Origin: Verrucomicrobium sp. BvORR106 | GTDB lineage: Bacteria > Verrucomicrobiota > Verrucomicrobiia > Verrucomicrobiales > Verrucomicrobiaceae | DNA length: 49,860 bases | NCBI RefSeq assembly: GCF_000739655.1 | Contig: NZ_BATR01000055.1 | Location: forward strand, 1 to 49,860 | Direction of reading: 5' to 3' | Shown here: positions 3,589 to 24,385 of the stretch, in pieces | Layout of the letters: every line of letters starts with the position of its first letter | Position numbering within the stretch: position 1 is the stretch's first letter | Notes under the pieces: model-generated | The model's database searches: none | Seen by the model: only the letters and a program-made list of their open reading frames with translations | Told to the model about the DNA's origin: nothing | Translations under genes and position numbers: made by a program

Positions 3589-3621
3589 CGAGTTCTCTCG
3601 AGTTTTTTCCCACTGATCAAG

Positions 3622-3655: not shown

Positions 3656-3657
3656 GT

Positions 3658-3975: not shown

Positions 3976-4158
3976 TGGAGGTCAGTCAGTGCCGACTTCC
4001 GACAATCGAACGGAGAAACTCATTGCCGTGTCACAAACACTGGCATTTTCCGATGCATGTCTTGTCGGGGGAGATCCCCGGCTGCCAACGCCGTGCTTCC
4101 ATCCCGCTCAATTGACTCCTCTGCGCCGCTGCCTCTGGCAGAGGGCGACCGTATCACC

Positions 4159-5397: not shown

Positions 5398-6293
5398 CCC
5401 GGCTGGATACCTGGAAGATTCTTCCGCATGAAATCGCCTTCGCGCTGTTCTGGATTTCTGGAACGGTGCGACTGGTGCTGGGGCACGGGTGGGGCGGTGA
5501 TGCCGTGCTCTTCTCCAGTCTGTTGCTGGTCAGTGGAGCGCTGATCCTGCTGTCACTCCGGCTGCCGCACCGGCGGTGGACCATGTGCCTGCGGCTCCTT
5601 TACTTCCCCCTGGCGATCAATCTGACCTATGCGGCCATCCGCACGGCCGTGCCTGCCATGACAACCCGTCGCTGGGACCTGGCTTTGCAAAAGTGCGATG
5701 AAACACTCCTGGGTGGGCACCCCTCCCTCTGGCTCCAGTCCTGGGTGAACCCCTGGACTACGGAGATCCTCAGTTTTTGCTACCTCACTTTCTTCGCGGG
5801 ACTGTTGCTGAGCTGGATCCATTATTATCGTCGGGATCTCGGTCTCGCCCGACTTTTCACGGCGGGTTTCTTCACCGTCTATGGGCTGGGATTTTTAGGT
5901 TATACCCTCGTTCCTGCTGCGGGGCCGCACCTGGATGCCGCTTTTGCCGCCCGCTACACCGTGCCCCTGGATGGCTGGGTATTCACCAAGTGGAACGCCG
6001 CCCTCGTGGAGGCGGGGAGCAACCGGGTGGATGTCTTTCCCAGCCTGCACACCGCGGTCACCGCCTTCCTCCTGGGGTTTGACCGCCGCTTTGCCCCCGG
6101 TCGATTCCGCCTCTGGCTGCTGCCCACCATCGGCCTGTGGCTCTCCACCATCTACCTGCGCTACCACTATGTGACGGATGTGGTGGCCGGGTTTGCCCTG
6201 GCTGGTTTCGCCCTCTGGCTGACCCGATACCTTCATGCCCCCCTCGCCCAACCGCCATCCCTACGCCGCCATGAGCCTGCTGCTTCCCTTTGA
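5394..6293 (+). CDS. PAP2_3-type membrane phosphatase / phosphotransferase
   Basis: This 299-residue protein has about six membrane segments and the two conserved blocks of the PAP2 superfamily: FPSLHT at 215-220 (catalytic-site H219) and the third block with R256, H258 and D262 in YLRYHYVTD. The first PAP2 block (KX6RP) is not visible, which is normal for the PAP2_3 branch that includes Aur1-like inositol-phosphoceramide synthases. It therefore either removes phosphate from a lipid such as phosphatidic acid or moves a phospho-headgroup between lipids. It overlaps the acyltransferase gene by 4 bp and the dikinase gene by 23 bp. The family call is firm; the substrate is unknown. Confidence 0.85.
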   Translation: MTRLDTWKILPHEIAFALFWISGTVRLVLGHGWGGDAVLFSSLLLVSGALILLSLRLPHRRWTMCLRLLYFPLAINLTYAAIRTAVPAMTTRRWDLALQKCDETLLGGHPSLWLQSWVNPWTTEILSFCYLTFFAGLLLSWIHYYRRDLGLARLFTAGFFTVYGLGFLGYTLVPAAGPHLDAAFAARYTVPLDGWVFTKWNAALVEAGSNRVDVFPSLHTAVTAFLLGFDRRFAPGRFRLWLLPTIGLWLSTIYLRYHYVTDVVAGFALAGFALWLTRYLHAPLAQPPSLRRHEPAASL

Positions 6294-8787
6294 TGACCCA
6301 CGCGCCACCCGGGTGGACCTCTGCGGGGGTAAAGGAGCCAACCTTGCCCTGCTCACGCAGAACGGGTTCCCGGTGCCCGCAGGCATGGTGGTCACCACCA
6401 GTGCCTACCAGGAGTTCGTCTCCGGACTGGGGGATATCCTCGCTCTTGCCACGGACCTCTCTGCGGAAGATCCGGTGCGCCTCCAGCAGGGCAGCGCTCA
6501 GTTGAGAGAGGAGCTGGCCCGCGCGCCGTTGGCAGAGTCCGTCGTGGCGCAGGTGCGCGAGGCCCTGGCCGCCCGCCCGGAGGGTCAGGCTTACTCGGTG
6601 CGTTCTTCTTCCAATCTCGAGGATCTGGCCAGCGCCGCCTTCGCCGGCCAGCACGATACCTTCCTCAACGTGATCGGCCCAGACGAAGTGCTGACGAAGG
6701 TCAAGGCTTGTTTCCTCTCCCTCTGGCATGATCGAGCCATTGCCTACCGGCGGGAGCATGGCTTTGACCACACCCTCGCCAGCATGGCGGTCGTGATCCA
6801 GGAGATGGTGCCCTGCGATGTCGCCGGTGTGGCCTTCAGCATCAACCCCGTGAACGGGGATCTGGGCACCATGGTGGTGGATGCCAACTACGGCCTGGGG
6901 GAGTCGGTCGTGAGCGGGGAGGCGGAGGTGGACCATTTTGAACTCGACAAGGCCACGGGCGCAGTGAAATCCCGCACCGTGGCCACCAAGTCTCATATGG
7001 TGGTTTCCTCAGACCAGGGCACCGAAGACCGGCCCGTGGACGAGGCGGCGGCGTGCTGTGCCTGCTTGAGTGACGGGCAACTGGCGGAGCTGGCGACACT
7101 CCTGGGCCGTGTGGAGCGCCACTACCGTTTTCCGCAAGACATCGAGTGGGGGCTGGTGGGGGACACGTTGCATCTTCTGCAGTCCCGGCCCATCACCACC
7201 ATCCCGCCCAAGTGGACCCGGGATGAATCGGCTGAACGCTTCCCCAAGGTGATCACGCCGCTGACCTGGGACTTTGTCGAGGCTGGTTTCCATGAATCGC
7301 TGCACTATTCCTTCCGGCTCATGGACTACCCAGCCTTTCGCGGGAAGTGGTTCGCCAGCTTTGGCCACTACATTTACGGCAACCAGAACGCCGTGCGCCT
7401 CTATGCGGGCCGGGCTCCGTTCCACTTCACCACTTTGGAGGATCTGCTGGGACAGATGCCCCGGCTCCGGGAGGAGTACCGCTGGGTGCAGGAGCTGCCC
7501 GTGACTTGGATGCGGGATCTGGATGGCTATCTCATCCGCCTGGGCGTGTTCTCCATGGTGCCGCTCCAAGAGATGAACGAGACTGCTTTGTGGGCGCATG
7601 TGAAGGAGGTGGTGGCGCATGGTGCGCAGTATTTCCGGCCTAACATCGCCATCTCCATCACCCAGTCGGTCCTCTGCCGTCTGCTGTTGAAGTTGCTGGC
7701 CTTTGTGGTGGGGGAGCAGGATGCTCGCCCCGTGTTCGATGCGCTGATGTCCTGGTGCGAGACCAAAACGGGTCAGATCAACCGGGAGCTTTTCGAGCTG
7801 GCGCATCGTGCCCAGCAGAAGCCGGCGCTGGCCATCCTGCTGAAGGAGGTTCCCTCACGTGAGATCGTTGAGGACCATCTGCTGGCACCGTTCGAGGAAT
7901 TCGCCGCCCAGTTTGAGCGGTTTCTGGAGAACCACGGGCATCGAGAGATCGACTTCGATGCCTACCAGCCACCGTGGCGTGAGGCCCCCTGGGTGGTGTT
8001 GGACAACCTCAAGATCATCCTCGCCTCGCCGATGCACGCCGCACCGGTGAAAAAAGAGCGGGAGATCAAGATGGCGGCGCAGCAGGCGGAGTTTCGCCTG
8101 TTCAGCAAGCTGCCTGCGGAAGCGCACTACTTCTTTTCCGAGATCCTCCGGCTGGCACGGGCTTACACGAGCCTGGATGATCTGGAGCACTACCAGACCA
8201 CCCGGCTCAACCAGCCATTGCGCATGGGCTTGAGAGCGCTGGGGGAGCGGCTTGTCGCCCGCGGCGTATTGGAAGAGCCCATGGACATTTTCTATGCCCA
8301 CGAGGCGCAGATCGACACCGCCGTCAGCGCCAGCTGTGGAACCGCCTGGCGGCTCCTGGGTGAGCAGGTGCGCACCCAGAAGGCCGCCTGTCTGGCGGAT
8401 GCCGCCCGGGAACCGGAGTGGAATTTGGGAGAATCAACCCCCGAGCCGGTGGAAGAATCTGGTGACATGACGGGATTGGCGGGCAGTCCGGGCGAGTCCG
8501 AAGGGGAGGTCTTCCGGGTGTTGTCGGCGGATGACTTTGCCAAGTTCCCCAAGGGGGCCGTGCTCGTGGCCCACACCACCAGCCCGACCTGGACCCCACT
8601 TTTTTATCTGGCCAGTGCGGTCATCACGTCCAGCGGCGGCCCGCTGTCTCACGGAGCGGTCACCGCCCGCGAAATGGGCATTCCCGCGGTGATGGCGGTG
8701 CGGGAATGTCTCTCGCGGCTTTCCAACGGGCAGCGGGTGCGGGTGGATGGCTCCCGAGGTCGCGTCAGACTGGTGCAGGAAACTTGA
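6271..8787 (+). CDS. Rifampicin-phosphotransferase-like ATP-dependent dikinase
   Basis: The domain order is that of rifampicin phosphotransferases and not of PEP synthase. An N-terminal PEP/pyruvate dikinase ATP-grasp domain (about 1-310, starting LCGGKGANLALL, with SVRSSSNLED near 110 and LLQSRPITTI closing it) is followed by a long helical substrate domain (about 320-730). A C-terminal swivelling phosphohistidine domain follows, with H794 in GGPLSHGA. The protein stops right after that domain, so the PEP-binding barrel of PEP synthase is missing. ATP should phosphorylate the histidine, which passes the phosphate to a third substrate. That substrate is unknown; the lipid-enzyme neighbours suggest a lipid headgroup rather than an antibiotic. 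The ATG at 6271 gives 838 residues; an ATG at 6235 is also in frame. Confidence 0.82.
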   Translation: MSLLLPFDDPRATRVDLCGGKGANLALLTQNGFPVPAGMVVTTSAYQEFVSGLGDILALATDLSAEDPVRLQQGSAQLREELARAPLAESVVAQVREALAARPEGQAYSVRSSSNLEDLASAAFAGQHDTFLNVIGPDEVLTKVKACFLSLWHDRAIAYRREHGFDHTLASMAVVIQEMVPCDVAGVAFSINPVNGDLGTMVVDANYGLGESVVSGEAEVDHFELDKATGAVKSRTVATKSHMVVSSDQGTEDRPVDEAAACCACLSDGQLAELATLLGRVERHYRFPQDIEWGLVGDTLHLLQSRPITTIPPKWTRDESAERFPKVITPLTWDFVEAGFHESLHYSFRLMDYPAFRGKWFASFGHYIYGNQNAVRLYAGRAPFHFTTLEDLLGQMPRLREEYRWVQELPVTWMRDLDGYLIRLGVFSMVPLQEMNETALWAHVKEVVAHGAQYFRPNIAISITQSVLCRLLLKLLAFVVGEQDARPVFDALMSWCETKTGQINRELFELAHRAQQKPALAILLKEVPSREIVEDHLLAPFEEFAAQFERFLENHGHREIDFDAYQPPWREAPWVVLDNLKIILASPMHAAPVKKEREIKMAAQQAEFRLFSKLPAEAHYFFSEILRLARAYTSLDDLEHYQTTRLNQPLRMGLRALGERLVARGVLEEPMDIFYAHEAQIDTAVSASCGTAWRLLGEQVRTQKAACLADAAREPEWNLGESTPEPVEESGDMTGLAGSPGESEGEVFRVLSADDFAKFPKGAVLVAHTTSPTWTPLFYLASAVITSSGGPLSHGAVTAREMGIPAVMAVRECLSRLSNGQRVRVDGSRGRVRLVQET

Positions 8788-8813
8788 TCATCAGGCACCC
8801 AAGTCTTGCAATC

Positions 8814-8843
8814 CCGGAAGGGGCGGGTCAGTATCCCTTCCGG
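8814..8843 (+). promoter_or_regulatory. Hairpin covering the translation start of the GYF_2 gene
   Basis: CCGGAAGGG (8814-8822) and CCCTTCCGG (8835-8843) form a perfect 9-bp stem ending one base before the ATG at 8845. The 5' arm contains the purine-rich stretch and the 3' arm lies where a ribosome binding site would be expected. It could limit initiation or end upstream transcription, although no T-run follows. Confidence 0.4.
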
Positions 8844-8844
8844 C

Positions 8845-9177
8845 ATGAACTGGTATTACTCAGTCGAGGGTCACGCGCTGGGGCCCGTAAACGAGGAGGC
8901 GCTTGAAAAGCTCGCCCGTGAAGGGGCGCTGGTGAAGGACACCCTGGTCTGGCAGCCGGAGCTCGAGGAATGGGCTCCACTGCAGAAGGTGCACCCTGAC
9001 TTGCTTGAGCGGGTGCGCCTGGTGCAGGAAAAGCCGGCTCCGCTGACGAAGGCCACCGCTCCGCTCCCCTTGCCCCCGCCGCCTTCTCATGCGGCCTCCA
9101 ACGGGGGCGCTCCAGGCGATTCTCACAAAGAAAAGCCGGGGCTCTTTGGGCGGCTTTTCGGTCGTGAGAGGAATTGA
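8845..9177 (+). CDS. Small GYF_2 domain protein
   Basis: The 110-residue protein consists of one GYF_2 domain (about 2-58: NWYYSVEGHALGPVNEEAL, then LVWQPELEEWAPL). A proline- and lysine-rich tail follows, ending FGRLFGRERN. GYF_2 domains bind proline-rich peptides and are common at the N-terminus of RDD-type membrane proteins in Verrucomicrobia and Planctomycetes. This one has no membrane segment, so it may act as a soluble partner of the GYF_2-RDD protein encoded 99 bp downstream, whose first 50 residues are clearly related. The start at 8845 was chosen because the domain begins there; an in-frame earlier start lies inside the hairpin. Confidence 0.8.
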   Translation: MNWYYSVEGHALGPVNEEALEKLAREGALVKDTLVWQPELEEWAPLQKVHPDLLERVRLVQEKPAPLTKATAPLPLPPPPSHAASNGGAPGDSHKEKPGLFGRLFGRERN

Positions 9178-9276
9178 GGTTGAGGCAGGTTTTTTGCTTT
9201 TCTCCACGGCTTCTCTCAGCGAGGGTGCAGCCGCACGTCACGCTTTTCCCCAACCTAAGACAGACCCTCCCGACAC

Positions 9277-10146
9277 ATGAACTGGTTCTACTCTGAAAAC
9301 GGACAACAAAAGGGCCCAATCTCCGACATGGAGCTGACCACGCTGGTTCGCGGCGGGACCATTCCGGTCAACACGCTGGTCTGGAGGGAAGGTCTGCCAG
9401 ACTGGCAGCCGCTCTCCCAAGTGCGGCCTGACCTCACCCAGGTAAGCGCGACAACGCCGACTCTCGGTGGCGTGCCGGTGTATGACAAGGGGCTCCTCCT
9501 CCAGCAGATGCGTGAAGGGGTGGTCACGGAGGCCACCCATCCGGGTGCGATTCAGTATGTGGGATTCTGGTGGCGCTTCCTGGCCTTCTTCATTGATTAC
9601 ATCGTCCTCAGCGTGGCGGGGTGTCTGATCATCATGCCTTTTGCCTTCGGGTTGGGGCTCATGGCTGGTGCTAGCGGTGGAGACGCAGCTGGCGCTGCCA
9701 TCGGGGTGCAACTCGTAGGTCAGCTCGTGTTGAATGCCATTCAGCTGGTCATCTGGGGTGGTTACTTTACGTGGATGAACGGCAAATACGGCGCCACGCT
9801 GGGCAAGCTGGCTCTGGGGTTCAAGGTAATCAATGCGGATGGCACCAAGACCTCCTATCTCCGTGCACTCGGTCGTTTTGCCGCAGAGTACATCTTGAAC
9901 GGGATCATTCTGACAGTCGTCGCCCTGGTCCTGGTGGGACTGGTCATGGCCCTGGGCTTTGGCGGCTTCCGCTCGCTCATGGAAAGCAACCGGGACGCCT
10001 TCGCCGGAGGCATCGCATTTGGCATGCTGGGCTCCATGGTGGTGGGTTTCCTGCTGGGTTCCTTCCCTTGGTGGATGGCGGCATTTGATCCCGAGAAGCG
10101 TGCGCTGCATGACCGCATCAGCGCGACCCGCGTGGTGCGCAAGTAG
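9277..10146 (+). CDS. GYF_2 and RDD domain membrane protein
   Basis: This 289-residue protein has a GYF_2 domain at 1-55 (NWFYSENGQQKGPIS, LVWREGLPDWQPL), a linker, and an RDD domain from about 92. The RDD signature is R100 and D107 in FWWRFLAFFIDY and a second D in the C-terminal KRALHDRISATRVV. Four or five membrane segments are visible, two of them rich in glycine and alanine. RDD proteins are membrane proteins linked to ion transport or envelope functions; the precise role is not known. It is part of a run of envelope genes to 15468 that includes DUF4129 and DUF4350 proteins, a usual neighbourhood for RDD genes. Confidence 0.88.
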   Translation: MNWFYSENGQQKGPISDMELTTLVRGGTIPVNTLVWREGLPDWQPLSQVRPDLTQVSATTPTLGGVPVYDKGLLLQQMREGVVTEATHPGAIQYVGFWWRFLAFFIDYIVLSVAGCLIIMPFAFGLGLMAGASGGDAAGAAIGVQLVGQLVLNAIQLVIWGGYFTWMNGKYGATLGKLALGFKVINADGTKTSYLRALGRFAAEYILNGIILTVVALVLVGLVMALGFGGFRSLMESNRDAFAGGIAFGMLGSMVVGFLLGSFPWWMAAFDPEKRALHDRISATRVVRK

Positions 10147-10190
10147 GACCGCCGAATTCCCCGATCCCTAAAAAACCACCCGGCGAGATC

Positions 10191-10844
10191 ATGGCCACCC
10201 TCCGCTGCACCAGTTGCGGCTACGCCATCCCTCAAGAAGCCTTCAAGGGGCGTGAGAGCGCCCCTTGCCCGCTCTGTGGGCGCGTGTCCCAGGCTTGGGT
10301 GCTTCCAGCTCTTGCCGTGGGTGCAGGGGATTCTTTGGCCGCCTCCCGGCCACCATCACTCCCGGACGATCCTCCTGGACCGGGCGACAACGTTTGTTTC
10401 TACAATCCTGAGCGGCGGGCCACGACGTCCTGCAGTCATTGCGGGGTCTTTATTTCTGATGCCTGGGCGGCTCAGTGGGGAGGGGAGACGGTCTGCTTCA
10501 AGTGTCTGGATAATCTCCGGCTCAAGCGGCAGGACTCCCGCTTCCAGTCACGGCGGGTGCTGTGGGACAACATTGCCCTCATGACGGCCCTCTCGCCCTT
10601 TCTCCTCTGCATCCCGCTCCTCTTGCTGGGGCCAGTCGGTGTGCCGTTCATTGTTCTGTGCGCCATGGCCAGCCTCATCACAGCCCCCACCGGGCTGGGG
10701 CTGTCCATCTTTGCCTGGGGCAAGCCTCGCAGCCTGGTGCCCCGGGGCCGGGGCCGGGTGGTGTGGGCCGCACTGTTGAGCCTCATCCAATGCGCGATCT
10801 GGGTCGCGCTATTCATCGGGGTGGTGTCCAAAAACTTTGGTTGA
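10191..10844 (+). CDS. Zinc-ribbon membrane protein with B-box-like finger
   Basis: In this 217-residue protein a zinc ribbon opens the chain (CTSC at about 5-8 and CPLC at about 25-28). After a linker there is a second cysteine cluster (NVCFYNP, CSHC, CFKC, about 66-105) with the spacing of a bacterial B-box-like finger. The C-terminal half has two or three membrane segments (about 122-155, 165-185 and 195-215). The fingers should face the cytoplasm and bind protein partners. The function is unknown, but a similar finger recurs in the protein at 11993. The stop is 8 bp before the next start. Confidence 0.78.
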   Translation: MATLRCTSCGYAIPQEAFKGRESAPCPLCGRVSQAWVLPALAVGAGDSLAASRPPSLPDDPPGPGDNVCFYNPERRATTSCSHCGVFISDAWAAQWGGETVCFKCLDNLRLKRQDSRFQSRRVLWDNIALMTALSPFLLCIPLLLLGPVGVPFIVLCAMASLITAPTGLGLSIFAWGKPRSLVPRGRGRVVWAALLSLIQCAIWVALFIGVVSKNFG

Positions 10845-10852
10845 AGCGGCCG

Positions 10853-11947
10853 ATGAAACAGTCATTCGACGATTACAAATATCTGGCTGGTGGCACCGGT
10901 GGCAAGGGCAGCCTCTGGCAAGGGCCTGACCATCTGCTCGTGGTCGAGGGACGAGGCTTCCTGCTTCCCTTCAGCGAGGTGTACCGCCGCGTGGACTATG
11001 ACAAGATCCAGGCGCTCTCTCTGGTCGCTACCAAAACCTACATCTGGGCTTCCGTGGGGATGGGGCTCGCCGCGATCTTCTTCCTGGGGATGGCTTTTCT
11101 GGCCCGTGATGAAGAGCCCTTTTTGCCGATTTCACTGCTCATCCCGGGAGTGATGCTGACGGTCCTGCTGTTGATCAACCTGTTTCGGGGTTCTACCTGT
11201 CGCTGCTCACTGCAAACGGCCGTGCAGGTCCTGCGGTTGAAGTCCCTGGTCCGTGTGCATAAGGCGGAGCAGGTCATGGCTCTGCTGGATGATCTCTGCC
11301 GCCGGCAGCAGGCTGGCTTGGCGCATGCTCCGGCCGCCTCAACCCGTCCGGGAGTGGAAGGGGTGGGGGCGCTGCCTCTGGCACCCGAGCTTCCCGGTGC
11401 TGCCATACCCGGTGGCAAGCCGCCCTGGCAGGGTAGCAACTGGACTTTCTTCACCGGGCTCCTGATGCTCTTGTGGGGGGCGGCATTGGCGGCGGAGTTG
11501 TTTGTGTCCGGGGTGGCTCTCACCATTTCCAGTGTGGTCCTGGGGACTGCGGTTGTCGTTCTGGGGATCATTGCCCTCGTCCACGCCTCCCGCTACCGGA
11601 CTCCTGTCACTTTGCTGGTGTGTCTCTGGGGGAATCTGGCGACGGATCTGCTGGCAGGATTGGGCATGTACATCCTGGCGGTGGCAGCGGTCATGCATCA
11701 GGGCATGAGCAATCCCGAGAAGTTGTTCGGCAACAAAGCCATGGGCAACGAGCACATCATCAGCTCCCTGGCCAACTACTCAATGGAGCAGTGTGAGCCC
11801 TGGGGCTGGGCCCTTGTCGTGTTGGGGGGCTTGATCCTGATTCTCGGCCTGAGTATTGTCGTTTACGGTGGGCGGGGTCGCCGCCTCGCTTCGGAAGAGG
11901 TCAAGGCCTCACCTCCTCTTCCTCCGCCACTGGACCCCGTTTCATAA
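10853..11947 (+). CDS. Multi-span membrane protein of unknown function
   Basis: The 364-residue product has an N-terminal region (1-60) that reads like a small beta-rich domain (LVVEGRGFLLPFSEV), perhaps PH-like, followed by two membrane helices (about 62-82 and 88-108). A cytoplasmic linker (about 110-180) carries three cysteines, and three more membrane helices follow (about 200-330). The tail is short and proline-rich. No family is recognised with confidence. The ATG at 10853 follows the preceding stop by 8 bp; longer in-frame extensions reach into the upstream gene and were not used. It is most likely co-transcribed with the zinc-ribbon and RDD genes. Confidence 0.72.
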   Translation: MKQSFDDYKYLAGGTGGKGSLWQGPDHLLVVEGRGFLLPFSEVYRRVDYDKIQALSLVATKTYIWASVGMGLAAIFFLGMAFLARDEEPFLPISLLIPGVMLTVLLLINLFRGSTCRCSLQTAVQVLRLKSLVRVHKAEQVMALLDDLCRRQQAGLAHAPAASTRPGVEGVGALPLAPELPGAAIPGGKPPWQGSNWTFFTGLLMLLWGAALAAELFVSGVALTISSVVLGTAVVVLGIIALVHASRYRTPVTLLVCLWGNLATDLLAGLGMYILAVAAVMHQGMSNPEKLFGNKAMGNEHIISSLANYSMEQCEPWGWALVVLGGLILILGLSIVVYGGRGRRLASEEVKASPPLPPPLDPVS

Positions 11948-16656: not shown

Positions 16657-16820
16657 CGGCAAATTCTAACGGGAAATTCCGGGAAGGGAATCCTTGTCTG
16701 AAGTTTTCACAGGGCGTCCACCCGGAGGCTGCGGGCAGAACAGATGTTCTATGGTGGCCGACCCTGGCGTGAGCTAGCGTGACGGCCGCAGCTTTGCGGA
16801 CACTGGTGAAAATAAAGTCG

Positions 16821-18470
16821 ATGCCCCAGCCTTTGGTCTGGCTGGCCCTGGTGGCTGGTCTGTTCTGTCATGCCTTGCCTCTGAAAGCAGAAGACGCTGT
16901 GGTGTGGCAATGGTCTGCTCCGATAGAAGAAGGGATCGTTTCTCCAGAAACTCAAGCCGCTCCCCGCGCCTATCTGTGGATCCCGCCCACTTGCCAGAAG
17001 CTGCGAGGCGTGGTGCTGGGGCAGCACAACATGGAGGAGGAGCCCATCCTGGAGCATTCCAGATTTCGCAAGGCGCTGGCAGAGTTGAATTTCGCAGCCG
17101 TCTGGATCACTCCGCCGTTGGGCATGGACCTCCAGGCGGATACTGCGTTGGGCGGGAGGTTCGAGGGAATTCTCAGCGCCTTGGGCGCCGCGTCCGGGTA
17201 CACGGAGCTGGGCACGGTGCCCGTGGTCCCCATCGGACACTCGGCTGCGGCCTCCTTCCCCTGGTCCTTCGCTGCGTGGAAGCCGGAGCGGACGTTGGCG
17301 GCCATTTCCATCAGTGGGCAGTGGCCTTATGCAAGGGATCCTGGCATTCCCAAACTGTCTGCGGATGCTCTCAACGGAGTGCCGGGTCTGGTGATTCTGG
17401 GGGAGTATGAATGGGCCTCAGATCGGGCGGGAGAAGGGCTTAAACAGCGTCGCGAACACCCTCGTCTGCCGCTGACCTTTCTGGCGGAGCCGGGAGGTGG
17501 GCACTTCGACGTCTCCGACGCCAAGGTGGACTTCCTGGCGTTCTATCTGCAAAGGGCCGTGCGATACCGCCTGCCGACTCAAGATGGGCAGCCGCTGGTG
17601 GCCCTTGATCCCAGTCGCGAAGGATGGCTGGTAGAGCGCTGGCGGCGTGATCAGCCCCGGAAGACTCCTATCGGGTCGGTGGCTCAGTACAGCGGAGATC
17701 CCGGTCAGGCGTTTTGGTGCTTCGACCAGGAAACGGCTCAGGGAATCGAGGGATTCGGGCACGAGCACGACAACAAGAAAGCCCAGTTGGTGGGCTACGA
17801 GCAGGCGGGCATCACGGTAGGGCAGGACAAGAACACTCATCAGCAGGTCACCTTGCCGTTCTTACCTGAACCGGACGGCATCACCTTCAAGTTGCGCGGC
17901 ACCTTTCTGGACTCAGTGCCAGAGGGACGTCCCGAGAAATGGGCACAGCTTCCCGCTGGTGCGAAGATCGACCACGCCGCTGGAGAAGGGCCGGTTGTCA
18001 TCCAAAAGATCTGCGGCCCGGTGACTCAACTCGGCCACGAGACCTTCCAGATCGCCTTTGGGCGACTTGGCTTCGACAACCCCCGGCGTTCCGGGGAGAT
18101 CTGGCTGATGGCAAGCCATCCGGGAGATGGGGAGTACAAACGCGCCGTGCAGCAGGCGGTCCTGAAGATCCCGGTGCGCAACACTGCCGGCCCTGCCCAA
18201 CGCATCACCTTTGCGCCCGTCCCCCATCAGAAGCCCGGAACGTCCACGGTGCCTTTAGTGGCCACCTCAAACTCCGGAGAGAAGGTGCGCTTCTATGTGC
18301 GTGAAGGCCCCGCCTGGGTGGATGGGGATACTCTTCATCTCACTCCGCTGCCACCTCGCACCCAGTTTCCTGTGAAAGTCACCGTGGTAGCCTGGCAGTG
18401 GGGCCGGTCCATCGAGCCGAAGCTGCAAAGCGCCGAGCCGGTGGAGCGAACCTTTGAAGTGGTGCGTTAG
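16821..18470 (+). CDS. Secreted alpha/beta-hydrolase-like protein
   Basis: This 549-residue protein has a Sec signal peptide (hydrophobic 5-20, cleavage near LKA). Residues 30-265 look like an alpha/beta-hydrolase fold with a nucleophile elbow G139-H-S141-A-A and a later GGHFDVSDA that could supply the catalytic histidine. The C-terminal 250 residues form beta-rich segments of the kind found in putative glycan-handling enzymes of this phylum. Such proteins are often annotated as hypothetical or dienelactone-hydrolase-like. The ATG at 16821 was chosen because it starts the signal peptide; an upstream GTG at 16779 would bury it. The substrate is unknown. The gene is divergent from the serine hydrolase gene and 84 bp before the TPR gene. 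Confidence 0.72.
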   Translation: MPQPLVWLALVAGLFCHALPLKAEDAVVWQWSAPIEEGIVSPETQAAPRAYLWIPPTCQKLRGVVLGQHNMEEEPILEHSRFRKALAELNFAAVWITPPLGMDLQADTALGGRFEGILSALGAASGYTELGTVPVVPIGHSAAASFPWSFAAWKPERTLAAISISGQWPYARDPGIPKLSADALNGVPGLVILGEYEWASDRAGEGLKQRREHPRLPLTFLAEPGGGHFDVSDAKVDFLAFYLQRAVRYRLPTQDGQPLVALDPSREGWLVERWRRDQPRKTPIGSVAQYSGDPGQAFWCFDQETAQGIEGFGHEHDNKKAQLVGYEQAGITVGQDKNTHQQVTLPFLPEPDGITFKLRGTFLDSVPEGRPEKWAQLPAGAKIDHAAGEGPVVIQKICGPVTQLGHETFQIAFGRLGFDNPRRSGEIWLMASHPGDGEYKRAVQQAVLKIPVRNTAGPAQRITFAPVPHQKPGTSTVPLVATSNSGEKVRFYVREGPAWVDGDTLHLTPLPPRTQFPVKVTVVAWQWGRSIEPKLQSAEPVERTFEVVR

Positions 18471-18554: not shown

Positions 18555-21227
18555 ATGAAGCCTGCCGCCCCCTCCAATTCCCCGGCCCCATCCGCCACAG
18601 ACAAGGTGCGCAGCCTGTTGAACGCCAAGCAGTGGCGCAAAGCTCGTGATGAGGCGAAGCAGGGCTGCAAAGCGGACAAAGCGACATTCCTTCCTTTGTT
18701 GATTGAGGCCAACACCGGTTTGGCCTTGGAGATGATCTCCAAGAAGCAGATTTCTGAAGCGGAACAGGTGATTTCCTACCTCGCAACGATCGCCCCCAAG
18801 GAGATCGTCGATTTACTGAAGAAGGAAATTGTCGCGCAAAAGGAGAGCCTGGCGGGAGCGACTCCTGCCCCACCGCAGGCTTCCGCATCGGTTCGCCTTC
18901 CCACATTGGATGAGGTGACAGCACTGGCCTCAAAGCTCAGTTCAGGAGAGGAGATTGCTTCTTCTGATTGGGACCGTATTGATGCCTGGGTGGCAGAGTT
19001 GCTGTCGAGGAGCCTCCCGACCCTGAAGGAGGGTTCTTCCCAGGTTCTTCAGGATTTGATCGCGATTGGCAGCGCAGTGGAGGCCGTGGGCAATGGTGAC
19101 TTTCCTGCAGCGCAGGACCTGCTGCGCCCCCTGTCGCTGAAATCTGCGTTGCAGCATTGGAAGTCGTTCCTGCGGGCAGTCGTCTTCACGCACCAGGGAG
19201 AGAAGGAAAAGGCCATCAAAGGATTCAGCACGCTGACGGCCTCTGCCTTCTTGACTCGGGCCTCCGTACCGTATCTCTCCCTTTTGAGGTTGCCGGCGGA
19301 GGCTGCGGCCAAGGCATCTGATGAACAGGTTGCATATGGCCTCCTCGCTCTGGTGGGAGGGGATCCCGGCTGGGCACCTGCCGTGGCAAAGGCCGAATCT
19401 CACTGGATCAAAGGCGAAGCCTCCCGGGCGTATCACGCACTGCGCAATGGCGCGAAAGGCAAGTTTCCCACGATTGCCCCGAATGCGGCTGGCTCGCTCA
19501 CGGATCAAGTGTTTGCCACTGGGGAACTGAGTGATGACCGGCGCGATCAATTGCTGTCGGCAGTATTGGCCGACCTGCCGAAGGCGCTGGAACGCCACAA
19601 GGAGTCATTGGCCATGCTGCGGTGTGTCATGTTGAACCTGGACTTCCTGAAGGAAACGGACATCCCTACGGTATTCGAAACCTACCTTCGGGTTTGGAAA
19701 GCTGAGGCAGGGCTGTCCCCGGAAACGGAGGCTCTGGCCCGGGTGTGGTTGGCGGAAAAGTGGGCGGATGAGGCCACGGTGCCGTCGCGGATTCCCGGTC
19801 AGTTTGAAGTCCTGATGCGCAACCCCAAGGCTGCCCAAGCTGAGTTTGAGAAGGCCATTCGGCTCCGGCCAGATTGGGTGAAGCCCTATCTGGGGTTGTG
19901 CCGGGTGTTGGAGAGGATAGAGACAAATTCTTCCAAGCGGCAGCAGCTTCTTGACGGGATGTGCCAGCGGTTCGAGGAAGACAAGAATGTGCTGGTACTG
20001 GCCGCTGAGTCAGACCTGGAGTTGAGGAACTTTTCGAAGGCGCTTGCGATCCTGGAGAAAGCGCTGCGATTGGATCCTCTCGACACCCGTCTGCAGGAAG
20101 ATGTAGTGTTTGCCAAGGCGGGTGAGATCATTGCGAAAGAGGAGAGAGCAGCCCCAGATGAATGGGCCGATGTGGAGCCTCTTTTGGTGAACGAGGCCAA
20201 GGTCCAGGCGCGATCTCGGTGGTGCATGCGGTTGATCCAAGGGGCGGGCCATCAACGTGGCAGCTTCGCAGCGGTCCGTGAAGAGGGCATGGCCCTGGCA
20301 CCCCATCCTCTGGTGGCGGTCTATTTCGAGCGGATGTTCTGCATTTGCTTTATTTTGCCCGTGCCCAAGGACAGCGCGGCGCGCTGGAAGGCGGCGCTTC
20401 CCTCAGTAAGTACGGAAACAATCATCCAGTTGCTGGATGTCTTTGAGTATTGGGTTTTGCGACGCAAGTCTGACGGTGAGGACAAGCAGGCTCGAGGTCC
20501 TCTGGAGGCAGCCATGGCAGCGGTGAAATTCAAAACCGCTTCAGCAGAAGCCGTGCTGAAGCTGGCCGACGCCCTGGTGTCGCGCGTGACCAAAGGTGCG
20601 AAAGATGCTCAGTTCAGGGAGCTGTGCGACTACCTGATTTTTCTCCTGCACAAACGTTTCCTTTCGAAAGAGCACAAGCCAAAGTCAGACCCGCGCTTGA
20701 GACTTGCAGTAGCCGTGTTGGACGATTTGCGGTGTTTCCGCGAGACCGTTTATGAGCCGGAGTTCTATCTGAAGAATCTGGCGAAAGATGCCACCGCGGC
20801 AGGTCTGCCGGTGGTAGCTGAGAGGGCTCGCAAGCTGCTGCACAAGGTGAAGGAACTTCACTCCAAGAGAAGGGGGCACTTCGACGATCCGATTGTCGAG
20901 GTTATCCCAGCTGGGCCGGACGGCTACGCTGATGATGAATCAGGCCTCTCCAATGACGACATCCGTGGGTTTATGGATATCATCCTCCAGATCAAGGATA
21001 CCCATCCACGCGATGTTGCCGCCTTCCGGAAGCGGGTGATCAAAGAGGGCGTGATACCGGTCGAGATGTTTGACCTGCTGGTTGACTTCGCCATGCATAG
21101 CTCAGACGAGGAGCTCGCCGAAATCATGATGGGTGAGGACGAAGATGACGATGAGCCGGATCCTCCGCCCAGCAAGCCGAAGGGGCGTGGAAAGACCGCC
21201 CATCCTGACCAGCTCGACTTGTTCTAA
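18555..21227 (+). CDS. Large TPR-like protein of the accessory Hsp70 cluster, ending in a clamp-binding motif
   Basis: The 890-residue soluble protein is mostly helical. TPR-like repeats are readable at about 422-450 (AQAEFEKAIRLRPDWVKPYL) and 492-514 (ALAILEKALRLDPLDTRL); much of the rest looks like degenerate helical repeats. The end changes character: an acidic stretch (EDEDDDEPDPPP), a basic flexible linker, and a terminal QLDLF (886-890, encoded by 21210-21224). QL[SD]LF is the consensus that binds the hydrophobic groove of the DnaN sliding clamp, and terminal placement is typical. TPR proteins commonly serve as Hsp70 co-chaperones or substrate adaptors, which suits the four genes downstream. 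The ATG at 18555 avoids a less likely start at 18513. No exact family was recognised. Confidence 0.78.
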   Translation: MKPAAPSNSPAPSATDKVRSLLNAKQWRKARDEAKQGCKADKATFLPLLIEANTGLALEMISKKQISEAEQVISYLATIAPKEIVDLLKKEIVAQKESLAGATPAPPQASASVRLPTLDEVTALASKLSSGEEIASSDWDRIDAWVAELLSRSLPTLKEGSSQVLQDLIAIGSAVEAVGNGDFPAAQDLLRPLSLKSALQHWKSFLRAVVFTHQGEKEKAIKGFSTLTASAFLTRASVPYLSLLRLPAEAAAKASDEQVAYGLLALVGGDPGWAPAVAKAESHWIKGEASRAYHALRNGAKGKFPTIAPNAAGSLTDQVFATGELSDDRRDQLLSAVLADLPKALERHKESLAMLRCVMLNLDFLKETDIPTVFETYLRVWKAEAGLSPETEALARVWLAEKWADEATVPSRIPGQFEVLMRNPKAAQAEFEKAIRLRPDWVKPYLGLCRVLERIETNSSKRQQLLDGMCQRFEEDKNVLVLAAESDLELRNFSKALAILEKALRLDPLDTRLQEDVVFAKAGEIIAKEERAAPDEWADVEPLLVNEAKVQARSRWCMRLIQGAGHQRGSFAAVREEGMALAPHPLVAVYFERMFCICFILPVPKDSAARWKAALPSVSTETIIQLLDVFEYWVLRRKSDGEDKQARGPLEAAMAAVKFKTASAEAVLKLADALVSRVTKGAKDAQFRELCDYLIFLLHKRFLSKEHKPKSDPRLRLAVAVLDDLRCFRETVYEPEFYLKNLAKDATAAGLPVVAERARKLLHKVKELHSKRRGHFDDPIVEVIPAGPDGYADDESGLSNDDIRGFMDIILQIKDTHPRDVAAFRKRVIKEGVIPVEMFDLLVDFAMHSSDEELAEIMMGEDEDDDEPDPPPSKPKGRGKTAHPDQLDLF

Positions 21228-21250
21228 ATCTTCCACCCCCCTGTTAACTC

Positions 21251-21553
21251 ATGAATCCCTATCTTGAACTGGGTGTCACCGAAAACGCGGGTGACGAGGA
21301 AATACGCCTCGCGTATGTGAAAGGCATCCAGACACGCTCTCCAGAAAACGATCCGGCAGGTTTTCAGCTGCTGAACGCGGCTTATGAACGCATCCGCACG
21401 TCTGAGCTGAGGGACATGTGGCGGCTTTTCCGGGACGCTGCCCCGGGGGCTTCGCTCTTGGATGCCCTGGCCCGCTACCTTCAACAACCCGGGGTGGCCC
21501 GGCCCATGCCCGCCGCCCAGTTCAAGCAGTACCTCCGTCTTTGTGCCAAATGA
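21251..21553 (+). CDS. J-domain-like co-chaperone with SPE in place of HPD
   Basis: The 100-residue protein is little more than a J domain. NPYLELGVTENAGDEEIRLAY matches helix I-II of DnaJ, and GFQLLNAAYERIRT matches helix III. Where DnaJ has the HPD tripeptide that stimulates Hsp70 ATPase, this protein reads RSPENDP, so the histidine is serine and the aspartate is glutamate. A variant group of bacterial J-like proteins with a PE..P..F pattern at this place is familiar to me, so it is probably a real subfamily rather than a damaged gene. The C-terminal 35 residues are helical and not recognised. Its stop overlaps the GrpE-like start (ATGA), which ties its expression to the exchange factor. 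Confidence 0.82.
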   Translation: MNPYLELGVTENAGDEEIRLAYVKGIQTRSPENDPAGFQLLNAAYERIRTSELRDMWRLFRDAAPGASLLDALARYLQQPGVARPMPAAQFKQYLRLCAK

Positions 21554-22275
21554 ATCCTTCTTTTCCCCTTCCTCACGGATCCGATGCTGATCCGGAAAGT
21601 TCCTCTGCTGGCCTCGAGTGGAAGTCGGCCCTGCGCGCGGAGTTCGAAACCTGGCTTGAGTCTGTCGATCAATTGGCTGAGCCGGAGGCGGATGAAATTG
21701 CAGCAGCTGAGGAAGCGCCTAGTCTGAGATCCTTCTACGAGCAACTCACCACTGCAACCACGGAGTGGCGTCGCTCGGGGCGCCGTACGGCTGATGTGCT
21801 CGCCCGGCTGGGCGACTCGCTCTCCGCCCTGGGTGAGGAGACTCGCCAGTTGCGTTTGCAACGATCTCAGGAGGAGCAGGGAGATGCTCTCCCCTCAGAC
21901 TGGTATCTGGCGCTGATCGAGACGGCCGACAAGATCCGGCGCATCCAAACCGCTTTCGATAGCCCTCCTCAAGTGTCTCCCACCTGGTGGCCTTCCGCCC
22001 GTGCTGGCCTGCAGACCTGGCGCAATGCGTGGCAGGTTCAGGGCGAAGCCTTCGCGATTCTGTCCGGGCATGTGGACGGACAGTTGAGGAAGGCCGGGCT
22101 GGAAAGGATCGTCACTCAAGGCCGGATCCTTGACCCAGCCGTGATGACCGCTGTCAGTGTGACGGTGGACGGATCGGTGCCCGATCAGACGGTGATCGAG
22201 GAAATATTACCCGGCTACCAGAGGGGCGGTCAGCTTGTCCGCGCCGCCCAGGTCCGGGTCTCCCGCTCCGCATAG
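21550..22275 (+). CDS. GrpE-like nucleotide exchange factor
   Basis: The 241-residue protein has long helices (about 60-190) for dimerisation. A C-terminal segment closely follows the GrpE beta-wing pattern: an LDPAVMTAVSV strand, a PDQTVIEEILPGYQ turn, then LVRAAQVRVS (about 192-238). In GrpE this wing inserts into the Hsp70 nucleotide-binding domain and releases ADP. The long N-terminal region is acidic and differs from housekeeping GrpE. The ATG at 21550 overlaps the J-protein stop; the Hsp70 gene starts 21 bp downstream. The order J, GrpE, Hsp70 in one operon implies a dedicated exchange factor. Sequence identity with GrpE is low outside the wing, so the call rests on the wing and the context. 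Confidence 0.8.
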   Translation: MNPSFPLPHGSDADPESSSAGLEWKSALRAEFETWLESVDQLAEPEADEIAAAEEAPSLRSFYEQLTTATTEWRRSGRRTADVLARLGDSLSALGEETRQLRLQRSQEEQGDALPSDWYLALIETADKIRRIQTAFDSPPQVSPTWWPSARAGLQTWRNAWQVQGEAFAILSGHVDGQLRKAGLERIVTQGRILDPAVMTAVSVTVDGSVPDQTVIEEILPGYQRGGQLVRAAQVRVSRSA

Positions 22276-22296
22276 AACCCCTCAGAAATTTACATC

Positions 22297-24057
22297 ATGT
22301 ACGAAGTTATTGCAGGCATTGACCTTGGAACCACGAACTCCGCCGTTTGTGTGGTGGAAGACGGCGCGCCTCGAATCCTTCCCGTCCACGGCCAGCCCAC
22401 GATGCCAAGTGCCGTGGGGCTGGATCCCACCGGGAGACTCATCGTGGGACAGGCTGCCAAGAATCAGCAGATCTCTGCACCAGAGCGCACCATCACCTCC
22501 ATCAAGAGGCTCATGGGGGAGGACACGAAGGTCACGCTGGGTGACCGGGAGCTTTCTCCAGAGGAGGTCAGTGCGCTGATTCTTAAGGAGCTGAAGCTGG
22601 CCGCTGAGACAGAGCTGGGGGTACCGGTGAAAAAGGCGGTGATCACGGTGCCGGCGTTCTTTAACGAGCGCCAGCGCAAGGCCACCCAGGTGGCGGGGGA
22701 GCTGGCCGGTCTGGAAGTCGTCCGGATCATCAACGAACCCACTGCGGCAGCGCTCGCCTATGGGGCCGGCCGTCAGGAAGGGGAGACCATGCTGGTTTAT
22801 GACCTGGGCGGCGGCACCTTCGATGTCTCTCTGGTGCGCGTGGAGTCCGGAGTGGTCGAGGTGAAGGCCAGCCATGGAGACACTCATCTGGGCGGCGATG
22901 ACTTTGATGAGGAGCTTGTCCGGCTTGCCTCGGAGCGTTTTCGCTCGCGGCACCGCACGGAAGGCGAGCTCCCTGATCTGGTGCGGAGGCGTCTGAAAGG
23001 CACCATGGAGTCTGCCAAGATCCGCCTGTCTGAAGAAACCTTTGTTCAAGTGCAGGAGGAGTATTTGCAGGCCGGTCAGCACCTCGACACAGAGGTGTCA
23101 CGCGCTGAGTACGAGGAAATGATCGAGCCCTGGCTGGAGAAGACGTTGACCTGCTTGCACAGCACGTTGCGGGACGCGGGCATGACCAGCGCGGAGGTGG
23201 GCAAGATCATGCTTGTGGGCGGAGCCACACGGACGCCGGCGGTGCAGGATTTGCTCAGAGAGCGGCTGGGACTTGAGGCTCATTTTGAGATCAACCCGGA
23301 TCTCATCGTCGCCATGGGGGCGGCGGTACAGGGGGCCATCATCGCCGGGCAACCGCAGCGGGCCATTCTGGTGGACATTACTCCGCACACTTACAGTGTG
23401 GCAGTGGTGGATCAAAACGTGGCGCACAGTCTGGTCTGTGACCCGATCGTGAACCGGAACACGCCTCTTCCGGCCAAGCGGGCTAAGACTTTCTACACGC
23501 TATTTGCCGGCCAAAAAGAGGTGAATGTAGAGGTGTATCAGGGGGAGGGTGCATTGCCCGAAGACAATCTCCTCGTGGGCGATTTCGTTGTGTCCGGGCT
23601 TTCCATCAATGCTCCGGAAGACAGCCCCATCATCGTTGAATTTCACCTGGATCTCAATGGCATGCTCAAGGTGACTGCCACGGAGAAATGCACGCGGCTT
23701 GCCAAGACGGTGGTGCTGGACACGAGAGGGCAGCACCTGCTCGACCTGAAAGCGGCCCGGGCCAATCTGGAGAGCTACTATGACGCAATCGCTGGAGATT
23801 CCGCCGAAGAGGAGGGGGCCTTCGACGGTGCAGACGAGGAGGACGGGGATTTGAACCAGGAGTCCTTGCTTGCCACGGCGAAGTCTCTCCAGCAGCGAGC
23901 GGAATTGCTTCTGGACAAAGGTGTGTCCGATGATGACGCCGGGGAGATCCGCCGCCTGCTGGATCTCATTGGTACCGCGATCGCAAGCCAAGAGTGGAGC
24001 CAACTGTCCAAGCATTCCGATGCCTTGGGCGACGTCTTGTTTTACCTCGAAGATTGA
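22297..24057 (+). CDS. Accessory Hsp70 chaperone (DnaK/HscA/HscC-like)
   Basis: This 586-residue Hsp70 has the complete ATPase domain: GIDLGTTNSAV (7-17), IINEPTAAALAYG, DLGGGTFD (169-176) and VGGATRTP (307-314). The linker to the substrate domain reads ILVDITPHTYSV, where DnaK has VLLLDVTPLSLG. A beta-sandwich substrate domain follows (about 390-490). The helical lid is short and preceded by an acidic stretch (about 510-530, EEEGAFDGADEEDGD). The total is shorter than DnaK, nearer to HscC and HscA. With its own J-like, GrpE-like and TPR partners it is probably specialised for particular clients and not the housekeeping DnaK. No heat-shock element was recognised upstream. Confidence 0.93.
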   Translation: MYEVIAGIDLGTTNSAVCVVEDGAPRILPVHGQPTMPSAVGLDPTGRLIVGQAAKNQQISAPERTITSIKRLMGEDTKVTLGDRELSPEEVSALILKELKLAAETELGVPVKKAVITVPAFFNERQRKATQVAGELAGLEVVRIINEPTAAALAYGAGRQEGETMLVYDLGGGTFDVSLVRVESGVVEVKASHGDTHLGGDDFDEELVRLASERFRSRHRTEGELPDLVRRRLKGTMESAKIRLSEETFVQVQEEYLQAGQHLDTEVSRAEYEEMIEPWLEKTLTCLHSTLRDAGMTSAEVGKIMLVGGATRTPAVQDLLRERLGLEAHFEINPDLIVAMGAAVQGAIIAGQPQRAILVDITPHTYSVAVVDQNVAHSLVCDPIVNRNTPLPAKRAKTFYTLFAGQKEVNVEVYQGEGALPEDNLLVGDFVVSGLSINAPEDSPIIVEFHLDLNGMLKVTATEKCTRLAKTVVLDTRGQHLLDLKAARANLESYYDAIAGDSAEEEGAFDGADEEDGDLNQESLLATAKSLQQRAELLLDKGVSDDDAGEIRRLLDLIGTAIASQEWSQLSKHSDALGDVLFYLED

Positions 24058-24064
24058 TTGCCCC

Positions 24065-24385
24065 ATGCCTGTGCGCTCCATCACCTGCCCAGCCTGTGGG
24101 AAGTTCAATGAGATCGAGGATGCCAATCTCGCCTGCCGTCGTTGCAGTACGGACTTGGAGCCTCTCCTGAGCCTTGATGCCGCGGCCGCAGGGTTGCGAC
24201 TTCTAGGGGCCCGGGCCCTCCGCCAGCAGCAGCCTGAAGAGGCGCTTGCTTTGGCGGGGCAGGCTTGGGGGTTGAGCCCCAGCCGCGCTACTGCCCAGGT
24301 GGCAATCCTCGCATCGGTGGGGTGCCGGGACTGGGAGGGGCTGATGTGCTGGAGACAGCGTCTCGCAGCACTGTCAGGTGCTTAG
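24065..24385 (+). CDS. Small zinc-ribbon protein at the end of the Hsp70 cluster
   Basis: The 106-residue protein opens with a zinc ribbon (C8-x2-C11 and C24-x2-C27). The remaining 70 residues form two or three helices with a TPR-like pattern (GARALRQQQPEEALALAGQAWGLSP). It starts 7 bp after the Hsp70 stop, so it belongs to the same transcript. J-type co-chaperones such as DnaJ use zinc ribbons to hold substrates. Here the J domain and the zinc ribbon are in separate proteins, so this protein may supply that function to the minimal J protein; this is inference. It ends 15 bp before the convergent hisF stop. Confidence 0.75.
   Translation: MPVRSITCPACGKFNEIEDANLACRRCSTDLEPLLSLDAAAAGLRLLGARALRQQQPEEALALAGQAWGLSPSRATAQVAILASVGCRDWEGLMCWRQRLAALSGA

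What the first reader, a model, noticed from the sequence alone, without database searches (positions are those of the whole stretch)
18555..24385. Self-contained accessory Hsp70 machine: TPR, J-like, GrpE-like, Hsp70 and zinc-ribbon genes in one tight operon
Five same-strand genes with gaps of 23, -4, 21 and 7 bp encode every class of Hsp70 partner, all divergent from the housekeeping versions. The J domain and zinc ribbon, fused in DnaJ, are separate proteins here. An 890-residue helical-repeat protein leads the operon. Seen: gene order and motifs. Inferred: the five act as one complex with dedicated clients.
Basis: partly seen in the sequence, partly recalled or inferred. Interest (0 to 1): 0.8.

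Follow-up and report, generated by a model that had tools for sequence, protein, structure and literature searches.

The report
Self-contained accessory bacterial Hsp70 machine
Five neighbouring genes encode what looks like a complete spare protein-folding machine (an Hsp70 motor plus its own helpers) that recurs in the same order in many distant groups of bacteria, separate from the housekeeping machine and using an altered form of the usual trigger motif; which proteins it serves is not known.

Summary
In detail: five same-strand genes (TPR, J, GrpE, Hsp70, zinc ribbon), gaps 23, -4, 21 and 7 bp. The genome also has housekeeping dnaK, dnaJ and grpE elsewhere, and an HscA/HscB-like pair. The order recurs far outside the phylum. 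A small J of this type occurs in 9 of 387 same-phylum genomes. In 80 loci from a scan of many phyla, J-GrpE-Hsp70-zinc ribbon is collinear in 64; of the other 16, 12 run off a contig end, 3 are real Hsp70-zinc-ribbon pairs and 1 looks broken. A long ORF fills the TPR position in 58 of 65 loci with J. The Hsp70s form one clade apart from DnaK and HscC (99/99). None of 65 J proteins has HPD; the site reads [P/S/A/T]-P-[E/D]. The nearest characterised system is E. coli HscC with DjlB/DjlC, whose J loop is equally short; five HscC loci show no GrpE or zinc ribbon of this kind. No common neighbour names the client. The 'zinc ribbon split from DnaJ' idea is not supported. Most likely: a dedicated-client Hsp70 machine; complex formation and clients are inferred.

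The parts
18555..21227 (+). All-helical TPR-type solenoid, 890 aa, acidic C-terminal tail; first gene of the operon; probable client-recognition or scaffold subunit (inferred)
   Evidence: TPR_2 29 bits; TPR_19 in 29 of 45 relatives; AlphaFold2: nearly all helix, mean pLDDT 68, confident at about 14-99 and 424-530; TPR superhelices, Z up to 12.5, which for repeats may mean only a common arrangement
21251..21553 (+). 100-aa stand-alone J-domain protein; HPD replaced by SPE (residues 30-32) and loop about 6 residues shorter than in E. coli DnaJ
   Evidence: pLDDT 89; helices 15-28 and 35-48; Foldseek rows mostly J domains; E 0.004 at best, none at 0.001, prob 1.00
21550..22275 (+). GrpE-like nucleotide exchange factor, 241 aa, overlaps J by 4 bp
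   Evidence: (PF01025 50.3 bits over residues 104-238)
22297..24057 (+). Hsp70, 586 aa; NBD deletion at about E. coli DnaK residues 76-101, substrate-domain loop insertion, conserved C-terminal tail ..GDVLFYLED
24065..24385 (+). 106-aa zinc-ribbon (CPAC..CRRC) plus TPR-like helical hairpin; constant neighbour of this Hsp70

Best explanation
The five genes encode a dedicated-client Hsp70 machine of a separate Hsp70 clade, working beside DnaK. Proposed cycle: the large TPR solenoid (perhaps with the zinc-ribbon/TPR protein) captures the client; the small J protein triggers ATP hydrolysis on the partner Hsp70 through a [P/S]-P-[E/D] loop whose acid contacts the conserved arginine (DnaK R167 equivalent); the dedicated GrpE drives ADP release; the zinc-ribbon protein is a fixed partner of the Hsp70 itself, since the two stay together in three loci where the other three genes are absent next door. 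The operon moves between lineages as a unit. Shown: gene order, separate clade, retained ATPase and J-contact residues, loss of HPD, correlated evolution, co-existence with DnaK. Inferred: physical complex, order of events, transfer, client.
For: Order in 80 loci: JGHZ 64, GHZ 6, HZ 9, JGH 1. Hsp70s form one clade, 99/99, 28 rows (98 in a smaller tree of 28 rows, 16 of this family). Residues in 82 rows (five genomes stand in these twice): K70 82, R167 77 R and 4 K, N170 81, T173 82. J: 0 of 65 with HPD; site PPE 36, PPD 17, SPD 6, SPE 4, TPE 1, APD 1. J fold predicted. GrpE domain above cut-off. Spearman correlations of pairwise distances 0.63-0.94 among the five proteins over 48 complete loci plus the window. 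12 of 12 named genomes also carry a full-length DnaK-type Hsp70 above 873 bits. Hsp70 and zinc ribbon alone in L106, L117, L155.
Against: No interaction data; only single chains could be modelled. PMC13254874 (passages) says replacements such as HPN or QPD abolish ATPase stimulation and that only HPE seems tolerated, so a PPE or SPE J might be inactive. In 14 of 65 J proteins a histidine stands just before the triplet (e.g. HPPE), so there an H-P-P-E reading with one inserted residue is possible. No shared neighbouring gene identifies a client. Correlated distances could partly reflect common descent of genomes. The conserved Hsp70 C-terminal tail persists in L106, L117 and L155, which lack the TPR gene next door, so it is not shown to be a TPR docking tail.
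Confidence: 0.65

Rival explanations
1. The small J protein is a pseudo-J (like mitochondrial Pam16): it keeps the fold but restrains or positions the Hsp70, and ATP hydrolysis is triggered by a housekeeping DnaJ or by the TPR protein.
For: HPD absent in 65 of 65; known single changes in HPD abolish activity and pseudo-JDPs exist (PMC13254874, passages). Nostoc and Acaryochloris copies read PAH at the site.
Against: The proline and an acid (E or D) are kept in 65 of 65, and the Hsp70 arginine that the acid would contact (contact recalled) is R or K in 81 of 82 rows. HscC partners with HPE, RPD or DPQ at the site have the same short loop, and DjlC is reported to stimulate HscC (PMC8215388, passages).
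Confidence: 0.2
2. It is a duplicated general stress chaperone set: broad clients, redundant with DnaK.
For: All core parts of a DnaK machine are present; patchy distribution (9 of 387 in the phylum; 5 of 185 gammaproteobacterial genomes including the centre) fits a dispensable back-up.
Against: Separate clade rather than recent dnaK duplicates; 36-37% identity to DnaK; an extra TPR subunit, mostly of 800-950 aa, and a zinc-ribbon subunit that DnaK machines lack; no CIRCE-type heat-shock operator in the window (0 matches with 3 mismatches allowed; other heat-shock controls not tested).
Confidence: 0.2
3. It is a regulator of a conflict or defence system, as Hsp70/GrpE/DnaJ-TPR sets are in some GAP1-N2 GTPase systems.
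For: PMC7159879 (passages) describes about 14% of GAP1-N2 neighbourhoods with HSP70 and GrpE, and a protein fused to DnaJ or TPR; plasmid copies exist; patchy spread.
Against: No family is widely shared among 405 flanking ORFs (largest in 9 loci); PADLOC gives only weak matches (PglZ E 0.019 for J, PDC-M61B E 2e-4 for the Hsp70).
Confidence: 0.07

Closest known systems
E. coli HscC with DjlB/DjlC
   Same: Hsp70 with the NBD deletion at residues 76-101 and the substrate-domain loop insertion; J partner with the short xP[ED]xDPxxF loop, HPE in DjlB/DjlC; helical-repeat material linked (long C-terminus of DjlB/C; Sel1 gene ybeT)
   Different: HscC is its own clade, 100/99, and placing E. coli HscC inside this family is rejected (p-AU 1.7e-4); whether HscC is the sister clade is unresolved (86/62). 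No GrpE or zinc-ribbon profile match at five HscC loci; J is fused to a long C-terminal part in DjlB, DjlC and most HscC partners seen; the histidine is kept in DjlB/DjlC
DnaK-DnaJ-GrpE
   Same: Same three catalytic activities expected; GrpE domain above cut-off
   Different: Different Hsp70 clade; stand-alone non-HPD J without G/F, zinc or C-terminal domains; extra TPR and zinc-ribbon subunits
Myxococcus xanthus MxDnaK2 with its GrpE (MXAN_6671/6672)
   Same: Second Hsp70 with its own GrpE in one operon (PMC11019930, passages)
   Different: No J gene neighbours it (same source); sequence not compared here
GAP1-N2 GTPase conflict systems with HSP70/GrpE/DnaJ
   Same: Hsp70, GrpE, J and TPR domains in one neighbourhood (PMC7159879, passages)
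   Different: Those are built round a GTPase; no common neighbour was found here

Membership tests
Hsp70 superfamily | PF00012 match with catalytic residues | tested here: met
   458 bits, cut-off 20.6; D8, G10, S14, K70, R71, D201 in 82 of 82 rows, N13 in 80
HscC | Belongs to the HscC clade | tested here: not met
   HscC 5 rows one clade 100/99, this family 28 rows one clade 99/99; E. coli HscC inside the family rejected, p-AU 1.7e-4. A sister relation is not excluded: the branch between them has 86/62, and the program flagged HscC and the C123 Hsp70 as long branches that meet
HscC | NBD deletion at DnaK residues 76-101 and insertion in SBD-beta loop L1,2 | tested here: met
   Alignment; definition from PMC8215388 passages. 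The deletion also occurs in many non-proteobacterial DnaKs (same source)
HscC | J partner of DjlB/DjlC type (HPE, short loop) | tested here: inconclusive
   Short loop met; histidine not met (SPE in the window)
HscC | Works without GrpE | tested here: not met
   A GrpE gene lies between J and Hsp70 in the window and a GrpE gene was found in 71 of 80 loci; whether it acts on the Hsp70 is not tested
DnaK | Belongs to the DnaK clade | tested here: not met
   DnaK 7 rows one clade 99/99 (with the own HscA among them) without this family
J-domain protein, class C | J-domain fold | tested here: met
   DnaJ domain in 50 of 51 (the window protein alone is below Pfam's cut-off); predicted fold pLDDT 89; J-domain hits in the PDB by profile, E 3e-13, and by fold, E 0.004
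J-domain protein, class C | HPD motif | tested here: not met
   0 of 65; SPE in the window. By the usual scheme a type IV or pseudo-JDP
GrpE | PF01025 over its cut-off | tested here: met
   50.3 bits, cut-off 25.8
DnaJ zinc domain (CxxCxGxG repeats) | Match to the DnaJ cysteine-rich domain | tested here: not met
   0 of 43 zinc-ribbon members at E 0.01
GAP1-N2 conflict system | Linked GAP1-N2 GTPase | tested here: inconclusive
   No family common to the flanks, but the GTPase itself was not searched for
MxDnaK2/GrpE bicistron | Sequence clade | not tested
   No Myxococcus xanthus sequence was fetched

The most novel reading that the evidence does not exclude
A further deep class of bacterial Hsp70 machine, beside DnaK, HscA and HscC: its own J, GrpE, TPR-solenoid and zinc-ribbon subunits, inherited and transferred as one unit across many phyla, in which a J domain systematically without the HPD histidine is the natural, active trigger, and the zinc-ribbon protein is an obligate, previously unrecognised Hsp70 partner.
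Probability: 0.45. Interest if true: 0.75.

Novelty: new variant of a known kind. Interest (0 to 1): 0.6.

Why it matters
[quoted passage not shown] Here is a widespread operon in which such a departure is the rule, next to its own Hsp70 and GrpE, so the question can be tested on a natural matched set. It would also give a compact system for asking how a TPR solenoid and a zinc-ribbon protein assign clients to an Hsp70.

Tried and rejected
Housekeeping set: rejected, since dnaK (C114), dnaJ/grpE (C168) and an hscA/hscB-like pair (C208) are elsewhere. One further Hsp70-family hit in the own genome (C77, 43.7 bits) reads as MreB (identified from the sequence by recall). Membership in the HscC clade: rejected by the trees, though the resemblance is real and a sister relation stays open. 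Search for a linked client: no family shared widely among 405 flanking ORFs; this used simple ORF calls of 90 aa or more, so small or overlapping genes may be missed. Heat-shock operator CIRCE: none. Promoter-like sites 2 (shuffles 1.2, sd 1.0) and terminator-like sites 8 (shuffles 5.2, sd 2.1): close to chance. GC content of the operon is like its surroundings. Plasmid search with the GrpE found nothing, although GrpE is annotated in the plasmid operons found by Hsp70, so that search was too insensitive. Plasmid search with a proteobacterial J gave 14 records, DjlB-type and Azospirillum J proteins among them, none covering 80%. Phage records hold Hsp70 relatives (48 records, all under 60% identity; the rows shown 37-45%), not examined for this operon. 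The TPR protein by pairwise search finds only the same-genus copy among 17 loci. TPR fold comparison gives only generic TPR superhelices; a weak profile match of the N-terminal part of the TPR family to Tah1-type TPR structures (E 0.002) was not followed. Idea that the conserved Hsp70 tail docks the TPR protein: weakened by L106, L117 and L155. Literature: nine searches listed no paper whose title or abstract start describes this operon; I saw listings, and passages of four papers (PMC8215388, PMC7159879, PMC11019930, PMC13254874). The library holds open-licence papers only, and the most relevant survey (Barriot et al. 2020, cited in PMC8215388) was not held under the DOI I tried from memory.

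The counts have limits. The scan used two exact peptide patterns from one part of the Hsp70, built without the window and Nostoc copies, and only the best 80 of 312 relatives were examined. Without these five the J count is 60: PPE 32, PPD 17, SPD 6, SPE 3, TPE 1, APD 1. Of the 16 loci without the full J-GrpE-Hsp70-Z order, 12 run off a contig end (L100, L115, L125, L129, L138, L145; L116, L142, L149, L162, L165; L148), 3 are real Hsp70-Z pairs (L106, L117, L155; the missing genes could lie elsewhere in those genomes) and L168 looks broken. 'TPR' in the 58 of 65 means an ORF of 300 aa or more ending next to J; not each was checked for TPR motifs (Pfam TPR_19 in 29 of the 45 scanned). Of the 7 loci without one, 4 have J within 900 nt of a contig start and 3 (L123, L134, L135) have a long frame running into J and were not resolved. 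The first motif count took the first fitting triplet anywhere in a frame; anchors it to the site, and a first try at that failed through a wrong spacing.
Full report
What is there. Five genes on the + strand, 18555-24385, encode an 890-aa TPR-type protein, a 100-aa J-domain protein, a 241-aa GrpE-like protein, a 586-aa Hsp70 and a 106-aa zinc-ribbon protein, with gaps of 23, -4, 21 and 7 bp exactly as reported. Hsp70 and GrpE pass Pfam cut-offs clearly (458 bits against 20.6; 50 against 25.8) and TPR_2 just passes (29 against 27); J (21 against 27.8) and zinc ribbon (16 against 27) do not. The flanks are a 563-aa protein without a Pfam match upstream and an opposite-strand gene with the histidine biosynthesis domain downstream.

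It is an accessory set. The genome (8.69 Mb, 209 contigs) has a full DnaK (845 bits, C114), an HscA-like Hsp70 next to an HscB-like J (C208), this Hsp70, and a fourth, short Hsp70 on C123. Housekeeping GrpE and DnaJ lie together on C168. 12 of 12 named genomes taken from the loci also have a full-length DnaK-type gene above 873 bits.

The order is conserved. A same-genus genome has the whole operon (TPR 88%, J 99%, GrpE 98%, Hsp70 97%, zinc ribbon 97% identity). Of the five other same-family genomes in the draw, none has a close relative of this GrpE; one has a hit of E 1e-4, at the level of the housekeeping GrpE. A J profile over 387 same-phylum genomes finds nine small J proteins of this type (E 2e-14 or better, own genome included), after which come frames of DnaJ size at E 9e-12 and worse. 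Beside the two same-genus genomes, seven were read: G127, G083, G321, G098 and G361 hold all five genes, G331 holds J to zinc ribbon at a contig start, G314 holds TPR to Hsp70 and its zinc ribbon was seen later under its other name L108. A Nostoc plasmid carries TPR, DnaJ-domain, GrpE, Hsp70 and a zinc-ribbon/TPR protein in that order; Acaryochloris plasmids carry partly broken copies.

A scan of a collection of 84,980 species genomes with two peptide patterns from the substrate-binding half gave 312 relatives, of which the best 80 were kept. Their record titles name, besides Lentisphaerae, Kiritimatiellae and Verrucomicrobia, alpha-, beta- and gammaproteobacteria, Magnetococcales, Mariprofundaceae, Desulfobacterales and relatives, Nitrospirae, Acidobacteria, Myxococcota, Phycisphaerae, Spirochaetia and Neomarinimicrobiota (titles as deposited; many are MAGs). 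Order: J-GrpE-Hsp70-Z in 64 of 80, GrpE-Hsp70-Z in 6, Hsp70-Z in 9, J-GrpE-Hsp70 in 1. Twelve of the 16 incomplete loci run off a contig end; three are real Hsp70-zinc-ribbon pairs without the other genes next door (L106, L117, L155); one (L168) looks broken. An ORF of 300 aa or more stands in the TPR position in 58 of 65 loci with J. Median intergenic gaps are -1 to -4 bp (ORFs called at the first start codon, so overlaps are upper bounds). The system is patchy in Gammaproteobacteria too: 5 of 185 genomes, centre included, have a short J (81-147 aa frames) at E 7e-19 or better; the other 17 genomes with a match have it in frames of 300-415 aa, DnaJ-like in size.

The Hsp70. A tree of 42 rows puts 28 family members in one clade (99/99), apart from seven DnaK (99/99) and five HscC (100/99). 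A smaller tree without the long HscA and C123 rows agrees (98, 100 and 100), and holding E. coli HscC inside the family is rejected (p-AU 1.7e-4; tested after seeing the first tree). How the three clades join is unresolved (86/62), the root is unknown, and the window copy is a long branch. Within the family the window copy sits with a Phycisphaerae copy in the mostly proteobacterial half (94/91 and 86/73), not with the Lentisphaeria or Kiritimatiella copies; its nearest TPR, J and Hsp70 relatives by identity are proteobacterial, while its GrpE and zinc ribbon are too divergent to say. This suggests lateral acquisition, not proof. The Hsp70 shares with HscC the NBD deletion at DnaK residues 76-101 and an insertion in the substrate-binding domain. 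ATPase residues are kept; J-contact residues R167, N170 and T173 are kept (77 R and 4 K; 81; 82 of 82 rows), while DnaK E206 is kept in only 4 of 82 and is R or K in 50 (that these residues contact J is recalled). The C-terminus ends in a conserved tail, typically S-D-[IL]-L-[FY]-Y-L-E-[ST].

The J protein. No HPD in any of 65; the site reads PPE 36, PPD 17, SPD 6, SPE 4, TPE 1, APD 1, SPE in the window, and PAH in two cyanobacterial copies. In 14 of 65 a histidine precedes the triplet, so HPPE could there be read as HP-D with an inserted residue; the others have C, Y, F, N, W, S or A. The loop is about six residues shorter than in E. coli DnaJ. The fold is still a J domain. Partners of HscC have the same short loop with HPE, RPD or DPQ at the site. 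By profile score the HscC partners (31-40 bits) are no closer to this J family than E. coli DnaJ is (43 bits), so the shared loop is the only special link seen. A 2026 review says only HPE seems tolerated and calls the meaning of such changes enigmatic (PMC13254874, passages).

The other subunits. The TPR protein is nearly all helix in an AlphaFold2 model of moderate quality (mean pLDDT 68), with TPR-superhelix look-alikes. The zinc-ribbon proteins keep two CxxC pairs in 86 of 86 followed by a TPR-like hairpin; 0 of 43 match the DnaJ zinc domain. A zinc-ribbon gene was found in 79 of 80 loci, the exception being cut by a contig end; with the three Hsp70-Z loci this makes it the closest companion of the Hsp70.

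How it works, most likely. A client-dedicated Hsp70 cycle: TPR capture, J-triggered hydrolysis through the remaining acid, GrpE reset, zinc-ribbon protein as a standing Hsp70 partner. Pairwise distances of the five proteins correlate (Spearman 0.63-0.94, 48 loci plus window), which supports one functional unit but also reflects shared descent. The client is unknown: 405 flanking ORFs share no common family beyond small groups, the largest in 9 loci.

Known or new. The closest characterised system is HscC with DjlB/DjlC. It differs in clade, in showing no GrpE or zinc-ribbon match at the five loci looked at (E. coli and four plasmids), and in J architecture. M. xanthus MxDnaK2 has its own GrpE but no neighbouring J (PMC11019930, passages). 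Nine literature searches listed no paper on this operon; the library is open-licence only. I rate it a new variant of a known kind.

Noticed in passing
L044 (G000:C123:64000-75275), 6204-11071 on -: A second accessory pair in the same genome: a 495-aa Hsp70 with a short substrate-binding part, next to a 1097-aa frame, mostly coiled-coil by eye, whose C-terminus matches GrpE.
   Followed up: partly
L106, L117, L155: Hsp70 and zinc-ribbon genes of this family without TPR, J or GrpE next door, in three unrelated lineages.
   Followed up: partly
L130 and L133 (Paracraurococcus sp. LOR1-02): Two copies of the operon in one strain; the Hsp70 frame of one is split by a stop.
   Followed up: no
L168 (Thiocapsa sp. 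KS1): The family's Hsp70 is in two overlapping frames and J is not found: probably a decayed copy.
   Followed up: no
L088 and L180 (Acaryochloris 'Moss Beach' plasmids pMB03, pMB02): Three plasmids of one strain match the family's Hsp70; the two read have split or shifted GrpE, TPR or Hsp70 frames.
   Followed up: no
L172 (Pseudomonas oryzihabitans plasmid), 1-10359: An HscC plus J pair downstream of copper-resistance and heavy-metal two-component genes; E. coli HscC is linked to cadmium resistance in PMC8215388.
   Followed up: no
L173 (Rahnella victoriana plasmid), 7001-10632: HscC followed by two adjacent genes that both match the J profile, one annotated DnaJ and one hypothetical.
   Followed up: no
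L099, L107, L110, L127: In several gammaproteobacterial loci the operon follows genes that look like gatC, gatA and gatB (naming by recall from the sequences).
   Followed up: no
window 16779-18470, +: 563-aa gene just upstream of the operon without any Pfam match at E 0.1.
   Followed up: no
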